Positions 23,040 to 33,268 of a stretch of 64,000 nt of DNA are shown one piece after another. The stretch lies in contig CAKZRR010000017.1 in the NCBI GenBank assembly GCA_937146805.1, positions 1-64,000 on the forward strand. The letters are read 5' to 3'. This DNA is from an uncultured Owenweeksia sp. (GTDB taxonomy: Bacteria; Bacteroidota; Bacteroidia; Flavobacteriales; Schleiferiaceae). The position numbers and the translations under genes were made by a program. Positions within the stretch are counted from its first letter, which is position 1; the number at the start of each line of letters is the position of its first letter. The notes under the pieces are model-generated. The model did no database searches and was not told the origin of the DNA. It was given only the letters and a program-made list of their open reading frames with translations.

Positions 23040-24293
23040 TTAGCAAAGACGTAAAATAACGGAAGCCAAAAAGGAGAGGATTAGTCCAATTAAGAAAATG
23101 GTGAGTGACCACCTAATAAAATTGTATTTGCGGTGCAGGGTTTTACCCAAATAGTAAATGTCTTTAATCATAGAAGAATAAAGAAAATCACTGTCGCTCA
23201 ATTTTTCGAGCATACCCCATTCGTAATCTCTAAATTCCATTTTATGGAAGTTGCCAAAGTAAAGTAGGTTACCCTCTTTATTTCTAATTTCTTCCTCAGT
23301 AAATTGCCCTTGAGTTTTGTTGGGCGTAATAGAAAGCACCGCAAAAATGATGGACATAAGGGCGGTTAAAGCCATAATGCTAATGGGTACTACAAGTTCA
23401 ATTTTGTCGTGATGTACTTGGCCTAAAATACCTCCAATCACAATAGAAAGTATGATAGAGTTTACCGTAATCATAATATTGGCCTTTTTATCCACCATTT
23501 CATTAAGCGTGTAATGGTTGTTGCTGGTGGTTCTAAAAAGGGTTTGTATACCTCTACTATCTCGGCCTTTTACCGAGCTTAAGTTTTTACGGAGTTCTTT
23601 TAATTCTTGATCGGATATTTTGAGCTGCTTTTGAACTAAACGGCTTTTCTTTTTGTTGAGTTTATGTTTTTCTGTTTCTAACTCTTGTATTAAAAAAGCC
23701 AGTTTGGGCTTGATATGCTCCTTGGCGTAAGAGGTATTGGGTTGGTAATTTTCGAGGTGTTGAATGGCTAATTCATAAAACTTTTTTACGCTTAAATCCA
23801 GGTCACTTAAAATAGTTTCCTGATAAAATTTTTGCAATTTATCAAGAGCATTACTCTCGGTAAAGTCCATCAATAGGGCATCTACAAAAATGCCTTCTAG
23901 GCGATCGGGGCCTGCTTCAAATTTTAAACCCGCCTTAATTACCCTTATTACGGTTTGAATAGTTTTGGGTTCAAACTGTGCTTTTTGGAGTAAGGATGGA
24001 AAGGCCTCGTCAATAAAACTAGCGTATTCTTTGCGTACTACTTCGGGGTCTTTATCTGCCGATTGTACCTGCCCCAGTACCGAAGTGTAAAGCCACGTAG
24101 CTAATTCAAGCTGCTTTTCTTCTTCCTTCTCTAAACTAGTGCCAACTATAGTAATAAGGTTATTTACAATGCGTTTGGCAAATTTCACATTGTGGTAAAC
24201 AATGTGATCTGAGTTTTCGATAATGGTTTCAATCGCGTAAAGCTTAACTTTATTTAAGCCACTTTGATTGATATGTTCGTAGTACTGAGTCAT
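23040..24293 (-). CDS. Pycsar-effector-like (PycTM) membrane protein with degenerate HD domain
   Basis: A 417-residue protein. The C-terminal part (about 255-417) closely fits the PycTM domain: SRGIQTLFRTTSNNHYTLNE, MVDKKANIMITVNSIILSIV, LLYFGNFHKM, YEWGMLEKLSDSDFLYSSMI and YYLGKTLHRKYNFIRW, with three hydrophobic segments. PycTM domains act as membrane-disrupting effectors of cyclic-pyrimidine antiphage signalling and also occur in many Bacteroidetes proteins fused to an N-terminal HD phosphohydrolase domain. The N-terminal half here aligns with that HD domain (IVYHNVKFAKRIV, LATWLYTSVL, DALLMDF), but the HD dyad expected in the WFHD-type motif reads WLYT, and the following NHEE-type histidine is absent. 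No nucleotide cyclase is nearby. A charged, probably coiled-coil linker (about 195-255) joins the halves. Confidence 0.85.
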   Translation of the reverse strand: MTQYYEHINQSGLNKVKLYAIETIIENSDHIVYHNVKFAKRIVNNLITIVGTSLEKEEEKQLELATWLYTSVLGQVQSADKDPEVVRKEYASFIDEAFPSLLQKAQFEPKTIQTVIRVIKAGLKFEAGPDRLEGIFVDALLMDFTESNALDKLQKFYQETILSDLDLSVKKFYELAIQHLENYQPNTSYAKEHIKPKLAFLIQELETEKHKLNKKKSRLVQKQLKISDQELKELRKNLSSVKGRDSRGIQTLFRTTSNNHYTLNEMVDKKANIMITVNSIILSIVIGGILGQVHHDKIELVVPISIMALTALMSIIFAVLSITPNKTQGQFTEEEIRNKEGNLLYFGNFHKMEFRDYEWGMLEKLSDSDFLYSSMIKDIYYLGKTLHRKYNFIRWSLTIFLIGLILSFLASVILRLC

Positions 24294-26233: not shown

Positions 26234-26793
26234 GACCGTAGTTCGAGCCCTTCAAAACGGGTGCTAAAAATTTGGTTAAACAATTGCGAGAAAGCTTGCT
26301 CTTTGCGTTTCCTTCTTTGTTCTAGTAAAAACAATATATGTTGATTAAGAATTTCAAGCTCTAAATCAATATTTAGAGTATTTGCTATGTTGCCGTTTTG
26401 TTGTGCCAACTCAAGCAGCTTTAATACTTTTTGATGATACAATTCCTGTTGTAGTTGGTCAAGGCTTTTGCTTGCAGCTGGATAATGCTTTTTAATATCG
26501 TACACAAAAGCGGCATTTATATTGCCTAAATAATGTGCGAGCTCATAAAATAGATCAGCAAGTTGTTGAAATGGTGGTTTATTAGTTTGGCAAGCGAGGA
26601 GGATGGTTTCAGTTACTTCCTTTCTAAATAGACTAACACAATGCTCTACTATAATCTGTTTGTTGTTGTCCTTCGGAATAGGTTCTATCAGGTTTTCTTT
26701 GGCACGTGCCTGTAGCTCCTTTAAAGAAATACAGCGTATGCCATTTTCTTTAAAAAGCTTTAATGCAAATTGATAAAAGGAGTTGTAATGCAT
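26227..26793 (-). CDS. TetR-like protein with divergent DNA-binding region
   Basis: A 188-residue helical protein. Its first 50 residues line up in spacing with a TetR DNA-binding domain (FYQFALKLFKENGIRCISLK, ELQARA), but the segment where the recognition helix should be (ENLIEPIPKDNNKQIIVEHC) lacks the usual G-x-S/T-x-x-x-x-Y-x-x-F pattern. The remainder resembles a TetR ligand-binding domain (LADLFYELAHYLGNINAAFV, KHYPAAS). It could be a regulator with altered specificity or one that no longer binds DNA. I chose the ATG at 26793 over a TTG at 26808. It lies downstream of the RND efflux operon on the same strand, separated by three hairpin units and a terminator. Confidence 0.65.
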   Translation of the reverse strand: MHYNSFYQFALKLFKENGIRCISLKELQARAKENLIEPIPKDNNKQIIVEHCVSLFRKEVTETILLACQTNKPPFQQLADLFYELAHYLGNINAAFVYDIKKHYPAASKSLDQLQQELYHQKVLKLLELAQQNGNIANTLNIDLELEILNQHILFLLEQRRKRKEQAFSQLFNQIFSTRFEGLELRSS

Positions 26794-26804
26794 ATTGCTG
26801 TTTA

Positions 26805-26848
26805 ACAAAAAACCCGCGGAGAAACTGCAAGAGCAGCTGCCCCGCGGG
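26805..26848 (-). terminator. Intrinsic terminator just before the TetR-like gene
   Basis: CCCGCGG (26813-26819) and CCGCGGG (26842-26848) form a GC-rich stem; an inner CTGC/GCAG helix lies in the loop. On the minus strand the stem is followed by TTTTTTG. It is the third hairpin of the tandem array and sits about 12-20 bases before the TetR-like start, so it could end the RND transcript or act as an attenuator. Confidence 0.65.
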
Positions 26849-27042
26849 AACCTAACTAACTAAACCTAATCGTGAGATGATTTAGGAGTTTAGTTAAACC
26901 CACAGACATCAGCCTAAACTGGTGCCTGCGGGTACCTTAACTAACCTAAACCTACTCTTAAATACTACTTGGTTTGGGTTACCAACGGATTTGCTTCTAA
27001 AAACAAATCCGTTGGAATCTAACTTAACCTAACCTAATTATC
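26805..27042 (-). repeat. Three tandem hairpin units with TTAGGTT-type spacers
   Basis: Read on the minus strand, three units of about 80 bases follow the RND gene. Each has an opening spacer rich in TTAGGTT/TTAGTTA and then a stem-loop: 27015-26982 (12-bp perfect stem, CCAACGGATTTG), 26932-26899 (13-bp stem that pairs well only on the minus-strand RNA thanks to G-U pairs) and 26848-26813 (GC-rich stem with T tail). The spacer can pair with sequence after each stem, for example TTAGTTAA with TTAACTAA around the middle unit. The unit spacing is about 83-86 bases. This looks like a repeated structured RNA element in the 3' region of the efflux transcript. Confidence 0.6.
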
Positions 27043-27044
27043 AT

Positions 27045-30000
27045 TTACGCTAAAGCGGCTTCTTCTTGTTTTGCTTTTTGTTCGCGTAATAATTCCTGTA
27101 CCTCAGAGTTTTCCATGCTCAGAGGACTGTCGTCTAATATTATTTCTTCGTTTTTATCCATTCCAAATTTGGCCAGTACTCTATCCATTAAATAGTAAAT
27201 AACGGGTACAACAATTAGCGTTAAAAACATGGAGCTGGTTAAACCTCCAATAAGTACCCATGCCAAACCATTTTTCCATTCAGCACCTGCTCCTTCGGCC
27301 AAGGCAATGGGTAGCATGCCAATGGCCATGGCCAACGTGGTCATTAAAATTGGGCGAATACGGGTTTGAGTAGCTTTTACCAATGCTTCTTTTACTGGTA
27401 AGCCAGCTTCTTTTAACTGGTTGGTAAAATCTACCACCAAAATGGCATTTTTGGCTACCAAACCTATCAGCATAATCATCCCTAATAAGGAGAAGATACT
27501 TAAGGAGCTGCTGCTTAATGCTAAGGCCAATAAAGCACCAATTACTGCTAATGGTAGCGAAAACATTACCACAAAGGGGTAAGCATAGTTATCGTACAAG
27601 GCTACCATAATAAGATATACTAAGGCTAAAGAGGCAAACAAAGCAATAAATAAACTACCAAAGGCATCACCCTGCTGTTCCAATTGTCCACCCATTTTAA
27701 AGCTTACGCCCGAAGGTAAAACAGCGGCCTCCATTTTTTGCTGCACTTCAGTACCTACAGTGCCCACGGGCCTACCAATAACTTGTGCCTTTACCGTTAC
27801 GGTTGGTATTTTATCTAGTCGCTCTAATTTAGAAGGTCCCGATCCATCTGTAATGGTAGCAAATTGGCCTAGCTGAATAGTCTTACCCGCGCTGTTGATA
27901 AGCGTAAGTTTACTAATGTCATTGGCGTTTTTACGATCAAAAGCATCCAGTTTAATGTTGATATCGTATTCGTTTTCGCCTACTCTAAATTTGGTATCCT
28001 GAGTACCATTAAAGGCGGTTTGCATACTGGCACCTACCACTTCTAGGCTTAAACCTAATTCGGCCATTTTAGCACGGTCAATCTCTACCTTAATTTCGGG
28101 GTTTCCTTCATCAACACTAGTTTGCATTTCAGAAACCCCCGAAATTTCACCCAGCATGTTCATCACAATAGTGGAATAGGAAAGTAGAGAGTCTAATTCG
28201 GTACCTGTTAAAATTACTTGAATAGGAGCGTCATCGGCAGTACCCATAATACTAATGGGAACGGCTTTTATTTTAACCCCTGGTATATTTTCTTCCAACG
28301 CAATTTTCATGCGTCTAGCAAATACATCTGTGCTTACGCTGCGTTCTTCTTTAGGCACTAAGCCAACAGTAACTTGCGCTTTATAGGGCTCAGATGAGCT
28401 GGCCATCATTCCACTACTTTGACCTACGGTTGTATTAATGTTTACTACTTCGGCTTCTTTGGCAATAAACTCTTCAATAGTGCGAGTAACAAAGTTGGTG
28501 TTCTCAAGAGTAGATTTTTTGGGTAACTCCACTTCTACCATAAACTCTCCACGGTCTCCAGAGGCCACAAATTCGCTACCAATAAAACCAAAGCCTACCA
28601 GCATAAAGGAGCCGATAAACAATAGAAAAGTTCCGATTAATACAACGGCTTTATGCCCAAACGACCAGCGAAGTGCATTGGTCATGCCTTTTTCAAAACT
28701 GGTAACAATACCTTCAAACGCGCCTACCATTTTACCCAAAACACCGCTTTTATTGATGTGCTGTACCTTAGCAAAGCGAGAAGATAAAAGAGGAATCATG
28801 GTAAAGGCTACCAATAAACTTAATGCCGTACTTACCGCAACGGTAATAGAAAATTGAAGTAGTAAGCTGCCCACCATACCTCCCGTAAGGGCAATAGGTA
28901 AGAACACCGCAATAATTACTAAGGTGATAGATACTACGGTAGCACCAATTTCGCGAACACCATCGTATGCTGCCTGTAATCTAGATTTTCCCATTTCCAG
29001 ATGTCGGTATATGTTTTCAATAACCACAATGGCATCATCTACCAAAATACCTACCACCAGTGATAGTGCCAACAAGGTCATAAGGTTAAGCGAAAAACCT
29101 AGTAAGTACATGGCTGTAAGTGTAGAGATAATGGATACAGGCACAGCAATCATAACAATAATGGCTGTACGAAGGCTATGCAAAAAGAGCAGCATAATAA
29201 GCGCTACCAAAATAATGGCAATCATTAAATCGTGCATTACGGCATTGGCCGCTTCCAGCGTAAATTCTGAGCTATCGGATGCTACTTCAAATTGAAGACC
29301 CACGGTTTCAAAGTCTGTTTCAAGCTGATCCATAGCTTTATAAGCCTCAGCACTTAGTTCTACCGCATTAGCATCACTTTGTTTTTGAACACTTAATCCA
29401 ATGGCATTTTCACCGTTTATTCTGCTAAATAGTTCGGGGTCTTTTTGAGCATCTTGTACCTCAGCAACATCACTTAAGGTAATGTTAGACCCATCGGTAC
29501 CTTTACTTAATACAAGATTTCTAATTTGCTCTAAGTTTTCAAATTTCCCTGTTAGCCGTATGGAAGTTTGCTTGGTGGCATCTTTAATTTTCCCGGTAGG
29601 AAAATCTAAATTGGCATTGCTAATAGCATTGCTTACCTGTAGTATACTTAGGCCGTAAGAGCTCAATTTACTTTCGTTGATATTGATGCGAATTTCGCGT
29701 TGCTGGCCACCCAAAATGTTTACTTGGGCTACTCCTCTAATTTTAGATAAGGCCGGTATAATTTTGTTGTCAACTAAATCAAAAACCTCGGTAGGTGGTA
29801 AATCGGCAGTTACCCCAAGCCTCATAATGGGCATATCACCAAAATCAAATTTTCCTAACGAGGGAGATTCAGCATCATCGGGCAACCAGCCCAAAATGGC
29901 ATTTATTTTACGCTGACCTTCCTGCAACGAAAGATCCACGTCCATGTCCTCTTCCAGCTCTACTGTTACCGAAGAAACACCCTCCATAGATACTGAAGTA

Positions 30001-30239
30001 AGCTTCTTAATTCCCTCCATAGAGGCCACGGCATTTTCAATAGGCTTGGTTACCGAATTTTCAACCTCGTAGGGAGATGCTCCTGGGTAAACCGTAGTGA
30101 TGGATACAATAGGCGAACTCATATCGGGTATAAGTTCGTAATTGAGTTTGGTATAGCTAAAGGCACCTAAAGCTAGCAGTATCGTAAATATTACGACTAC
30201 CATGGTGGGTCTTTGTATGGATGTTTTTACAATATTCAT
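27045..30239 (-). CDS. RND efflux pump inner-membrane transporter (HAE1/AcrB type)
   Basis: A 1064-residue proton-driven pump of the resistance-nodulation-division class that exports hydrophobic or amphiphilic compounds through a tripartite channel. It has the usual duplicated layout: TM1 (about 12-30), a porter domain (YPGASPYEVENSVTKPIEN, NILGGQQREIRININ), TM2-TM6 with the proton-relay GILVDDAIVVIENIYRH in TM4 near residue 400, a second porter domain and TM8-TM12 (GLVAKNAILVVDF, TRIRPILMTTLAMAIGMLP). Length is normal. It is the third gene after TolC and the adaptor in one operon. Substrate not predictable from sequence. Confidence 0.95.
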   Translation of the reverse strand: MNIVKTSIQRPTMVVVIFTILLALGAFSYTKLNYELIPDMSSPIVSITTVYPGASPYEVENSVTKPIENAVASMEGIKKLTSVSMEGVSSVTVELEEDMDVDLSLQEGQRKINAILGWLPDDAESPSLGKFDFGDMPIMRLGVTADLPPTEVFDLVDNKIIPALSKIRGVAQVNILGGQQREIRININESKLSSYGLSILQVSNAISNANLDFPTGKIKDATKQTSIRLTGKFENLEQIRNLVLSKGTDGSNITLSDVAEVQDAQKDPELFSRINGENAIGLSVQKQSDANAVELSAEAYKAMDQLETDFETVGLQFEVASDSSEFTLEAANAVMHDLMIAIILVALIMLLFLHSLRTAIIVMIAVPVSIISTLTAMYLLGFSLNLMTLLALSLVVGILVDDAIVVIENIYRHLEMGKSRLQAAYDGVREIGATVVSITLVIIAVFLPIALTGGMVGSLLLQFSITVAVSTALSLLVAFTMIPLLSSRFAKVQHINKSGVLGKMVGAFEGIVTSFEKGMTNALRWSFGHKAVVLIGTFLLFIGSFMLVGFGFIGSEFVASGDRGEFMVEVELPKKSTLENTNFVTRTIEEFIAKEAEVVNINTTVGQSSGMMASSSEPYKAQVTVGLVPKEERSVSTDVFARRMKIALEENIPGVKIKAVPISIMGTADDAPIQVILTGTELDSLLSYSTIVMNMLGEISGVSEMQTSVDEGNPEIKVEIDRAKMAELGLSLEVVGASMQTAFNGTQDTKFRVGENEYDINIKLDAFDRKNANDISKLTLINSAGKTIQLGQFATITDGSGPSKLERLDKIPTVTVKAQVIGRPVGTVGTEVQQKMEAAVLPSGVSFKMGGQLEQQGDAFGSLFIALFASLALVYLIMVALYDNYAYPFVVMFSLPLAVIGALLALALSSSSLSIFSLLGMIMLIGLVAKNAILVVDFTNQLKEAGLPVKEALVKATQTRIRPILMTTLAMAIGMLPIALAEGAGAEWKNGLAWVLIGGLTSSMFLTLIVVPVIYYLMDRVLAKFGMDKNEEIILDDSPLSMENSEVQELLREQKAKQEEAALA

Positions 30240-30282: not shown

Positions 30283-31341
30283 TTATTGGTTTATGGCTCT
30301 TATTTTAGTGCCATTTTCCAAATTAATTTGGCCATTTACCACTACTTGGGTTCCCTCGGTTAGGCCAGCAACTATCTCCATTTCACTTTCGTGGATTTGG
30401 CCCACCTTGATAGAAGTTAATTGAGCAATACCATTTTTAAACACAAAAACTTTGGGGTCTTTTACGCTGCCTGTTAAGGCTTCTCTGCTAATATATAAGC
30501 CTTCTACTTGGCTACTAAAATCGAAATGAGCTTGCGCAAACATTCCTGGTTTTAAAGGTTTTTCGCTGCTGTTATCCAAAACAATTTCAACGTTGTATTT
30601 TAAACCATCATCTGCTTTAGCGCCTATAGAAACAAGGGTGCCTTTAAAGCGTGCATTTGGATAAATTTGAGTGCTTAAGGCTATTTTTTGGCCTGTACTT
30701 AAACTCAAAATATTGGAGGCAGTAACTTTTACATTTAGCAATAGTTTACGTGCATCTACCACCTCGTACAGTTTGTTGTTTTTAGAAACATAAGAGCCTT
30801 CTTGAAAAAAGTCATCGTTAATGGTACCCGCTGCGTTAGCCTTAATATAGGTGTCGTTTAATTGCTTTTGAGCATTTTGATAGGCGGCTTCGGTTGTGTT
30901 TAAATTTATTTTGGCATCTTCCAACTGTCGCTGGGTTACGGCTTCTTTTTTAGCCAATGCGGTAAAGCGTTCTACGTCTATTTTGGCTTTATCAAAATTG
31001 GCTTTAGCGGCTATTAAATTGGCCTTAAGGCTGCTGTTTTCTATTTGAGCCAATAAAGTTCCTTTGTTTACAAAATCACCTTTTTGATGAAACATTTTAG
31101 TGATAAGGCCATCTGCTTGCGCTAAGATGTCCAGATCGCTAATAGCTTCAAAAGTGCTAGTAGCTTGTAAGCTGCTTTCTAATTTTTTGCGGGCAACCGA
31201 GGCAATTTCTACTGGAATTACGTCACTGGTTTCTTCGGCCAGCTTGGCGTTTTCTTCCATCTCGGCTTTATTGCCAGATAAGGTAAAGGCTACCATTGCG
31301 ATGGCGGCAAATACAACAACGGTGATGATTATCTTTTTCAT
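30283..31341 (-). CDS. RND efflux periplasmic adaptor (membrane fusion protein)
   Basis: A 352-residue HlyD/AcrA-type adaptor. An N-terminal signal anchor (about 1-22, KKIIITVVVFAAIAMVAFTL) is followed by a barrel-sandwich region split around a short helical hairpin (ISDLDILAQADGLITKMFHQ, KGDFVNKGTLLAQIENSSL, the coiled-coil with KAKIDVERFTALAKKEAVTQ, then AAGTINDDFFQEGSYVS), a beta-barrel domain (LKPGMFAQAHFDF) and a C-terminal membrane-proximal domain (VKDPKVFVFKNGIAQLTSIK). It bridges the RND pump at 27045-30239 with the TolC protein. It follows the TolC gene after 33 bases. Confidence 0.93.
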   Translation of the reverse strand: MKKIIITVVVFAAIAMVAFTLSGNKAEMEENAKLAEETSDVIPVEIASVARKKLESSLQATSTFEAISDLDILAQADGLITKMFHQKGDFVNKGTLLAQIENSSLKANLIAAKANFDKAKIDVERFTALAKKEAVTQRQLEDAKINLNTTEAAYQNAQKQLNDTYIKANAAGTINDDFFQEGSYVSKNNKLYEVVDARKLLLNVKVTASNILSLSTGQKIALSTQIYPNARFKGTLVSIGAKADDGLKYNVEIVLDNSSEKPLKPGMFAQAHFDFSSQVEGLYISREALTGSVKDPKVFVFKNGIAQLTSIKVGQIHESEMEIVAGLTEGTQVVVNGQINLENGTKIRAINQ

Positions 31342-31374: not shown

Positions 31375-32724
31375 TTACTTTTTTATTTCTTGCAATTGTC
31401 CTTGAGCTTTCAATAGGTCTAGTTCGGCTATTTTAAAGCGAAGTACCTCACGTATATAGTTGCTTTTGGCATTTCGGTAAGCCGACTCGGCATCTAATAA
31501 TTCAGTAAGGCTGGCAACATCCTCTTGATATAACTCTCTAGTTTGTTCGTAAACCTCTTTGGCTAATGCCTGATTTTCTTCTTGATTATTAACTAGTGTT
31601 AAGCTAGTGCTGAGTTGTTTTTTGGCATTTTCAAAATTTATTGATTCGGCCAGTTGGTTCATCTCTTCATCCAACTCTAGTTTTTGAATTCTAAGTTTAG
31701 ATTGTTGAACTTGATGGCGCTTTTGAAGTCCATCAAAAATGGGAACTTGCATTTGCAGCCCTAGTACTGAAGTTTTAAACCATTCTTGATCGCTATCAAA
31801 AAAGTCAAACTCATTTCTTTGGGCTTGTAAGCTGTAATTTCCAAAGGCCGAAAGAGTAGGGTAGTAACCTGCCTTAATACTTTTGTTTTCAAGTAGGTTC
31901 AGTTCTTTTTGTTTTTCCAATACCTTGGTTGTGCTCGATTCTATCTTCTCAAATTGTAAGGCACTTAAATCTACCTCTAAATCGGTTGCAGTATTTAAAC
32001 TAATAACCTGACTAGAAGGAACGCCTACTACTAATTTTAGTTGGTTGTGCAACTGAGAACTGCTGCTGTGTAATCCCTTTACTTGGCTTTCTAAATTGGA
32101 TTTATTTACACGTACTCGGTTGTACTCCAGTTTGGTAGCCAATTGGTTTTCGTAGCGAGCCTTGGTAATTTCTTCTAGTTTGGCTAGTTCAGCAATGTTG
32201 CTATCCAATACCTCAATTTGCGAAAGCAACTCTAAATTTTGAAAGTAGAGTGCCGATACATTGTAAATTACATCTTCGGTAGTTTTGATGGACATTAATA
32301 AGTACAATTCTTCGGAAGATTTAGCCGCTTTAAGACCAGTAAAAAAACGTTGGTCAAATAAAAGTTGAGAGGCGTCAATACCACCACTAGCATTGTAGGC
32401 CGTTCCAAATTGTACAGGAACAGAAGTCCCGGGCTGACCAATGATCTCTCCTGGTAAAATTTGAGTGGCAATATTTGGATAGTGCTCAAATCTGCCGCTG
32501 GCATTAACCTGAGGTAAGCCAGTTCCTTTTGTTTCGGCTACCAAGTGGGCGGCTTCTTTTTGGTCTAAGATTGATTTTCTAATTTCAATACTGTTTTCTA
32601 AGGCCAAATCTAAAAGCTGTGGTAAGCTGTGTGTTTGTGCATTGGCTGTAAAAGCCATGCTCCCTGCTATCCCTAAAAAGGTGAAGCGCGTAAGTAGTTT
32701 TTGAATGTTGTGCAATGGTTTCAT
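31375..32724 (-). CDS. TolC-family outer-membrane efflux channel
   Basis: A 449-residue protein with signal peptide (ending AFTANAQ at about 30) and the duplicated outer-membrane efflux protein domain: long amphipathic helices and short strands repeated twice (LDLALENSIEIRKSILDQKE and TELLDAESAYRNAKSNYIRE regions). YRNAKSNYIREVLRFKIAEL near the C-terminus is typical of the second repeat. It provides the outer-membrane exit for the RND pump. First structural gene of the efflux operon, directly after the MarR-like regulator, with an inverted-repeat operator candidate in the 70-base gap. Confidence 0.93.
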   Translation of the reverse strand: MKPLHNIQKLLTRFTFLGIAGSMAFTANAQTHSLPQLLDLALENSIEIRKSILDQKEAAHLVAETKGTGLPQVNASGRFEHYPNIATQILPGEIIGQPGTSVPVQFGTAYNASGGIDASQLLFDQRFFTGLKAAKSSEELYLLMSIKTTEDVIYNVSALYFQNLELLSQIEVLDSNIAELAKLEEITKARYENQLATKLEYNRVRVNKSNLESQVKGLHSSSSQLHNQLKLVVGVPSSQVISLNTATDLEVDLSALQFEKIESSTTKVLEKQKELNLLENKSIKAGYYPTLSAFGNYSLQAQRNEFDFFDSDQEWFKTSVLGLQMQVPIFDGLQKRHQVQQSKLRIQKLELDEEMNQLAESINFENAKKQLSTSLTLVNNQEENQALAKEVYEQTRELYQEDVASLTELLDAESAYRNAKSNYIREVLRFKIAELDLLKAQGQLQEIKK

Positions 32725-32794: not shown

Positions 32795-33268
32795 CTAACT
32801 ATTTTCCTTCTCCCATTTGGTGTATACTTTGGGTAGCTCGTCTATTAAAAAATCTAAAAAGTTAGTAACCTCGGTAAGCTTACCGTTAAATTCTGCAGTC
32901 TCGGCAGGGCGTTGTGCCAACACATCTTTAAACAAGTTTGATACAACAGAAAAATTTTTAAAGCTTTCGCGAACTTCTTCTTTCCAAGATCCGAGCTTGC
33001 TTTTAAAGTAGCGCTTGCGATCACCGGGTTTAGTTATGTACTCAATTTTACCTGTACCCAGCAATAAATTTAAGGCATTACTAGTGGCGCTTTTGCTCAT
33101 TTGCAAAGCCTCTCTAATATTGTCAAAGGTTAAATCCGTAACATCCGAAACCAATAGCAAAGCCACAATACGAGCTGCTGCTGGCTGCATTCCATCTCTT
33201 TCGCACAGTACCCCCAGCTTTTCTATCAGCTCTTTCTGTTTTTCGGTTATGTTAATTACGTTATCCAA
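32795..33268 (-). CDS. GbsR/MarR-family transcriptional regulator of the RND operon
   Basis: A 157-residue winged-helix regulator of the GbsR/MarR type: KQKELIEKLGVLCERDGMQP, AAARIVALLLVS, recognition region IREALQMSKSATSNALNLLL and wing KIEYITKPGDRKRYFK. The C-terminal half is a helical dimerisation or ligand region. The start is a TTG at 33268, placed 18 or so bases after a promoter with both consensus boxes. It is the first gene before tolC-adaptor-RND on the same strand, and matching inverted repeats upstream of both this gene and tolC suggest it represses itself and the pump. Confidence 0.87.
   Translation of the reverse strand: MDNVINITEKQKELIEKLGVLCERDGMQPAAARIVALLLVSDVTDLTFDNIREALQMSKSATSNALNLLLGTGKIEYITKPGDRKRYFKSKLGSWKEEVRESFKNFSVVSNLFKDVLAQRPAETAEFNGKLTEVTNFLDFLIDELPKVYTKWEKENS

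What the first reader, a model, noticed from the sequence alone, without database searches (positions are those of the whole stretch)
26805..27042. Three tandem structured hairpin units between an RND pump gene and a TetR-like gene
Seen directly: on the minus strand three units of about 83-86 bases, each a TTAGGTT-rich spacer followed by a stem-loop (12-bp perfect stem at 26982-27015; 13-bp stem at 26899-26932; GC-rich stem with T tail at 26813-26848). The middle stem pairs properly only in minus-strand RNA, where A-C mismatches become G-U pairs, which suggests selection on transcribed RNA. Spacers also pair with sequence after each stem (TTAGTTAA with TTAACTAA). The stems themselves differ in sequence while the architecture and spacers are kept. 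I do not know a named element that fits; a tandem RNA regulator, attenuator array or mobile small repeat is possible.
Basis: partly seen in the sequence, partly recalled or inferred. Interest (0 to 1): 0.65.

Follow-up and report, generated by a model that had tools for sequence, protein, structure and literature searches.

The report
Three small-RNA-like units behind efflux operon
Directly behind a multidrug-efflux pump gene lie three tandem units, each a C-poor UUAGGUU stretch plus a hairpin, that look like weathered copies of an uncatalogued RNA element found in one family of marine bacteria, both at efflux-gene 3' ends and as apparent stand-alone small-RNA genes.

Summary
Minus-strand 26805-27042 carries three units, each a nearly C-free leader plus a strong hairpin. 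Folding is far beyond chance (z -7.8), and every hairpin is stronger as minus-strand RNA. The array lies between the stop codon of an operon-terminal RND pump gene and a weakly TetR-like gene. Units 2 and 3 are clear duplicates. The same pump in three congeners carries a leader and hairpin at the same place.

Following the leader uncovered a family-restricted element: AUUAGGUUAAGGUUUGGUUAAU plus covarying hairpins and a U tract. It occurs (A) behind a second RND gene, before dxs; (B) as a probable stand-alone small-RNA gene with an ECF-like promoter; (C) as related genes, including a tandem triple in another genus. The 17-mer core is in 16 of 395 genomes of the order, all in this family. Rfam has no match.

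The window units are probably diverged relatives: shuffle p 0.001-0.03, and the region's three best model hits are the three units. They lack the intact core, and genome-wide significance is marginal.

Best reading: a tandem 3'UTR small-RNA-type array ending in an intrinsic terminator. A trans function is inferred; target prediction was negative. Rival: plain tandem terminator or attenuator.

The parts
27016..27042 (-). Unit 1 leader GATAATTAGGTTAGGTTAAGTTAGATT: no C; best match of the array to the family element core
   Evidence: score 30 against the core, 1/1000 dinucleotide shuffles as good
26982..27015 (-). Unit 1 hairpin (15 pairs, loop TTAG), no U tract after it
26961..26981 (-). Unit 1 trailer (TAACCCAAACC...), can pair with leader 1 (-8.8) or better with leader 2 (-11.5 kcal/mol)
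26933..26957 (-). Unit 2 leader GAGTAGGTTTAGGTTAGTTAAGGTA, shares TAGGTTTAGGTT with the G011 tandem RNA units
26899..26932 (-). Unit 2 hairpin CCCGCAGGCACCAG...CTGATGTCTGTGGG, 3 G-U pairs on the minus strand
26874..26898 (-). Unit 2 trailer, G-free, pairs with leader 2 (-17.1 kcal/mol); could alternatively pair with leader 1 or 3
26849..26873 (-). Unit 3 leader ACGATTAGGTTTAGTTAGTTAGGTT, shares ATTAGGTTTAG with the G011 units
26807..26848 (-). Unit 3 hairpin CCCGCGGGGCAG...CTCCGCGGG plus TTTTTT: canonical intrinsic terminator
27045..30239 (-). RND efflux permease (AcrB family, PF00873 900 bits), last gene of the TolC-MFP-RND operon; the array starts right after its stop codon
26227..26808 (-). 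Downstream gene, weakly TetR-like (ORF as listed starts at TTG 26808; likely start ATG at 26793, aligned with orthologues)
   Evidence: (TetR_N E 0.029 in orthologues only)

Best explanation
The three units are a tandem, diverged array of a family-specific RNA element: a C-poor UUAGGUU-rich single-stranded stretch followed by a hairpin. Elsewhere in the family this element occurs as apparent stand-alone small RNAs and as 3'UTR elements of efflux genes. Transcription of the efflux operon runs into the array and stops at unit 3, an intrinsic terminator (anatomy shown; termination inferred from sequence). The mRNA 3' end then carries, or after processing releases, short RNAs whose exposed leaders act as a seed or protein-binding site shared with the stand-alone RNA (inferred), so that pump expression is coupled to post-transcriptional control of other, perhaps envelope, genes (speculative). 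Units 1 and 2, whose trailers close the leader into a longer hairpin, may be stable decoy or stability modules (speculative). Shown: structure, position, RNA-strand bias, duplication of units 2 and 3, a congeneric counterpart, and the existence and covariation of the related element family. Likely but not proven: homology of the window units to that family.
For: Fold z -7.8 and minus-strand bias of all three stems. The orthologous RND gene in G001, G002 and G003 is followed by a C-poor G/U-rich leader and a hairpin. Among 28 readable RND-gene 3' ends in five genomes, core scores are 50 for RND2 (G002) and 30/26/20/20 for this RND gene, against 9-18 for the rest (one 21). The 17-mer AGGTTAAGGTTTGGTTA occurs in 16 of 395 order genomes, all in this family; the reversed control has one match. 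Class A behind RND2 and class B as a stand-alone locus have invariant cores and covarying hairpins; class B has a GTGAAC ... GTT(A/C)TTTA promoter-like pair just upstream. A tandem triple of related units, each with a TATATTTG box, exists in G011. With model R2 and filters off, the three best hits in 26700-27100 are exactly the three units on the minus strand (10.2, 9.9, 8.6 bits; next -0.4). Leader similarity to the core: 1, 11-16 and 8 of 1000 shuffles as good for units 1, 2 and 3.
Against: The window units lack the intact 16-nt core that is invariant in class B. Genome-wide significance is marginal: unit 1 is third of 857 kb and the reversed control reaches a higher score; model hits have E about 3 in 174 kb. 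The G002 and G003 counterparts are weak. No excess of predicted base-pairing targets over shuffled or reversed seeds. No clear promoter in front of the window units. No RRM protein in G000, G015 or G019. No expression data.
Confidence: 0.48

Rival explanations
1. Tandem terminator or attenuator: the array only insulates the TetR-like gene from the efflux operon or sets its read-through dose; the G/U leader keeps the upstream RNA unstructured. Unit 3 is the terminator, units 1 and 2 are decayed duplicates.
For: Unit 3 is a textbook intrinsic terminator. In G001 and G002 a single hairpin sits about 35 nt before the start of the same downstream gene, leaving little room for a separate promoter, and in the Owenweeksia relative (L064/L305) a TetR gene follows the pump directly without a hairpin.
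Against: Units 1 and 2 have no U tract. Ordinary terminators of this genome do not carry a C-poor G/U leader (16% C upstream on average). In G003 the downstream gene is gone but leader and hairpin remain.
Confidence: 0.34
2. mRNA 3'-end protection: the stable hairpins shield the efflux mRNA from 3' exonucleases, with no trans role.
For: Very stable stems and extended basal stems in units 1 and 2.
Against: Does not explain the C-poor leader or its likeness to a stand-alone RNA gene.
Confidence: 0.12
3. Chance likeness: the leaders are low-complexity sequence that only resembles the family element, and the tandem structure is a local duplication without function.
For: Genome-wide scores are marginal and the core is not intact.
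Against: Strand-specific structure, same element place in four species, and all three units as the best model hits of the region.
Confidence: 0.06

Closest known systems
FopS / GibS small-RNA family of Bacteroides thetaiotaomicron (PMC11697453)
   Same: Multicopy family; [quoted passage not shown] some members 3'UTR-derived, others from own promoters; the published R1' query contains ATTAGATTTAAGGTTAAC, reminiscent of ATTAGGTTAAGGTTTGG.
   Different: Seed likeness is not significant (135/2000 shuffles as good); no Rfam match of the window or related elements; RRM protein absent from G000; no target enrichment seen; window units sit in tandem behind an efflux gene.
LhrC1-5 multicopy small RNAs of Listeria (PMC4132741, PMC5880928)
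   Same: Multicopy small-RNA family tied to envelope stress, as a functional analogy for repeated units.
   Different: Different phylum; no sequence comparison made; no shown induction here.
Intrinsic (Rho-independent) terminators
   Same: Unit 3 and the class A/B/C hairpins with U tracts.
   Different: Invariant or conserved G/U leader upstream, and units 1 and 2 without U tract.

Membership tests
Element family described here (classes A/B/C) | Invariant core GGUUAAGGUUUGGUUA | tested here: not met
   Window leaders carry only partial matches
Element family described here (classes A/B/C) | C-poor leader directly followed by a hairpin, in an operon-terminal 3'UTR or stand-alone | tested here: met
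Element family described here (classes A/B/C) | Detectable by the covariance model R2 | tested here: inconclusive
   All three units are the best hits of the region but E about 3 in 174 kb
FopS/GibS small RNAs | R1 seed sequence | tested here: not met
   Score 21, 135/2000 shuffles as good, for the family core
FopS/GibS small RNAs | RRM-type RNA-binding partner in the genome | tested here: not met
   No PF00076 match in G000; present in G001-G003 and G030
FopS/GibS small RNAs | Base-pairing near start codons of outer-membrane transporter mRNAs | tested here: inconclusive
   No enrichment over shuffled seeds in 1043 start windows from part of two genomes
Intrinsic terminator | GC-rich stem followed by U tract | tested here: met
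   Unit 3 only; units 1 and 2 have none
REP/MITE-like mobile repeat | Sequence copies dispersed in the genome | tested here: not met
   Only self matches of significance in G000
Any Rfam 15 family | Gathering score reached | tested here: not met
   gathering; lenient threshold, nothing credible

The most novel reading that the evidence does not exclude
A previously undescribed multicopy small-RNA family, confined to one family of Flavobacteriales, uses one invariant 16-nt C-free core in an ECF-promoted small RNA and in 3'UTRs of RND efflux operons, so that efflux expression and an envelope-stress small RNA share targets; the window holds a tandem triple version.
Probability: 0.3. Interest if true: 0.75.

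Novelty: new variant of a known kind. Interest (0 to 1): 0.52.

Why it matters
To my knowledge, small-RNA regulators in Bacteroidota have been worked out mostly in Bacteroides. An invariant 16-nt core shared between a probable stand-alone small RNA and efflux-gene 3'UTRs gives a concrete, testable link between drug efflux and RNA regulation in environmental Flavobacteriales, in genomes some of which lack the RRM protein that handles such RNAs in Bacteroides. The tandem arrays (window and G011) suggest that the unit is repeatedly multiplied.

Tried and rejected
Rfam at gathering and lenient thresholds: nothing credible. Copies of the array in the own genome or 60 relatives by BLAST: none. C-poor leader as a general terminator feature of the genome: rejected. 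Loose leader pattern in four congeners: not clearly above control, but it led to the real element. Conservation behind RND orthologues outside the genus: none seen. Base-pairing targets genome-wide and near start codons: no excess. RbpB-type RRM protein as the general partner: absent from three carriers. FopS seed homology: not significant. Model R1 outside the family: only weak hits of 39 bits or less against 72-97 for class B. Phage origin: 20-mer core in no viral contig. TetR fold of the downstream protein: single-sequence model too poor (pLDDT 42). Integron attC sites were considered from memory and dropped: no cassette genes lie between the units.

Full report
WHAT IS THERE. On the minus strand, directly after the stop codon of an RND efflux permease (27045-30239), lie three units. 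Each has a leader of about 25 nt rich in UUAGGUU with no or one C, then a hairpin (26982-27015, 26899-26932, 26813-26848). The 281-nt RNA folds at z -7.8 against dinucleotide shuffles, 0 of 200 as good. All three stems are stronger as minus-strand RNA: they hold 6 G-U pairs there, against one in the stems predicted for the plus strand. Units 1 and 2 have trailers that pair back to the leaders. Unit 3 has instead a TTTTTT tract, a canonical intrinsic terminator. Units 2 and 3 are clear duplicates (score 53, shuffle maximum 34), unit 1 only weakly alike. In 464 kb of this genome, a C-poor leader followed by such a stem scores best at these three places, and ordinary terminators of the genome have no such leader.

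NEIGHBOURHOOD. The operon reads TolC (31375-32724), membrane-fusion protein (30283-31341), RND permease, array, then a gene whose congeneric orthologues show only a sub-threshold TetR_N match. The likely start codon (26793) lies 13 nt after the U tract of unit 3.

CONGENERS. In G001 and G002 the same RND gene is followed by one leader plus hairpin and then the same downstream gene; in G003 by one clear unit, perhaps two, without that gene. G001 keeps GAGGTTTGGTTAAT. RND orthologues outside the genus lack it.

THE RELATED ELEMENT. A loose leader pattern was not clearly above control in number, but some hits were intergenic and followed by hairpins, among them one present in all four congeners behind a second RND gene and before dxs. 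A gapped pattern over 88 genomes of the family revealed the exact 17-mer AGGTTAAGGTTTGGTTA in several genera. It is in 16 of 395 genomes of the order, all in this family, with one control match. The family includes the Owenweeksia isolate EAC74: contig G015:C21 has the length and the RND/TetR region of NZNV01000017.1.

CLASSES. Class A lies behind RND2 (one copy, L247, and one uncertain case, L224, excepted). A 22-nt stretch is invariant in the first alignment of 12 rows, and its hairpins covary: 5 of 12 pairs changed on both sides. Class B begins with GGTTAAGGTTTGGTTA invariant in 15 sequences, then two hairpins with 7 of 16 pairs changed on both sides. Its upstream gene varies (M28-like peptidase, spermidine-synthase-like, biotin carboxylase; names from reading the translations), and it is preceded by GTGAAC, about 15-17 nt, then (C/A)GTT(A/C)TTTA in most copies, as in ECF-type promoters (promoter type inferred). 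That is the anatomy of a stand-alone small-RNA gene. A third set carries a leader such as GCAGATTAATTAGGTTTAGGTTT plus hairpin; in G011 it is a tandem triple at 137 and 133 nt spacing, each copy with TATATTTG in front. No Rfam match at gathering score for classes A and B or the window.

DOES THE WINDOW BELONG? For: among RND 3' ends in five genomes, this gene's four orthologues score 30, 26, 20 and 20 and RND2 scores 50, against 9-18 otherwise and one 21. The leaders beat 97-99.9% of their own dinucleotide shuffles. With model R2 and no filters, the three units are the three best hits of the region, all on the minus strand; with default filters two of the three best window hits are units 2 and 3. 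Units 2 and 3 share 12 and 11 nt exactly with the G011 tandem units. Against: the core is not intact, genome-wide E-values are not significant, and the G002/G003 counterparts are weak. I call it a probable diverged relative.

FUNCTION. Termination at unit 3 follows from established knowledge of intrinsic terminators. A trans role of the leader is inferred from the invariant 5' core of class B and its reuse behind efflux genes. It was tested only by duplex prediction in part of two genomes, which gave no excess of targets. The closest functional analogue is the FopS/GibS family of Bacteroides, with a single-stranded 5' seed plus terminator, many paralogues and some 3'UTR-derived (PMC11697453). 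Membership fails: seed likeness is not significant and the RRM partner is absent from G000. The rival, a tandem terminator/attenuator before the TetR-like gene, is nearly as economical for the window taken alone.

LIMITS. No expression data; unnamed draft genomes; gene calls by open reading frames; compensatory change shown for classes A and B but not for the window units; E-values of the short-calibrated models are rough; the choice of consensus and of RND genes as the comparison set was made after seeing the data.

Noticed in passing
L371 (G011:C12) 1479-1830: Three tandem small-RNA-like units, each with a TATATTTG box, UUAGGUUUAGG leader, CCCCGAG hairpin and T tract, next to an Rrf2-type regulator gene.
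   Followed up: partly
L250/L315 (G000:C14:21683-21761), L312 (G002), L220 and relatives: Probable stand-alone small-RNA gene with ECF-like promoter, in front of a gene resembling the YkuK/RNase H-like family (name from memory); upstream gene differs between genomes.
   Followed up: partly
L212 6585-10070 (G000:C7): Second RND permease gene followed directly by the conserved element and then dxs, in all four congeners and other genera.
   Followed up: yes
window 23040-24293 (-): Protein with a Pycsar effector transmembrane domain (PF18967, E 6e-31), a candidate anti-phage defence component.
   Followed up: no
window about 32797-33260 (-): Reading frame just upstream of the TolC gene that looks like a MarR/GbsR-type regulator and may head the efflux operon (name from memory).
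   Followed up: no
L179 4898 (G002): TolC gene closing another RND operon also ends in a C-poor G/U-rich leader plus terminator.
   Followed up: no
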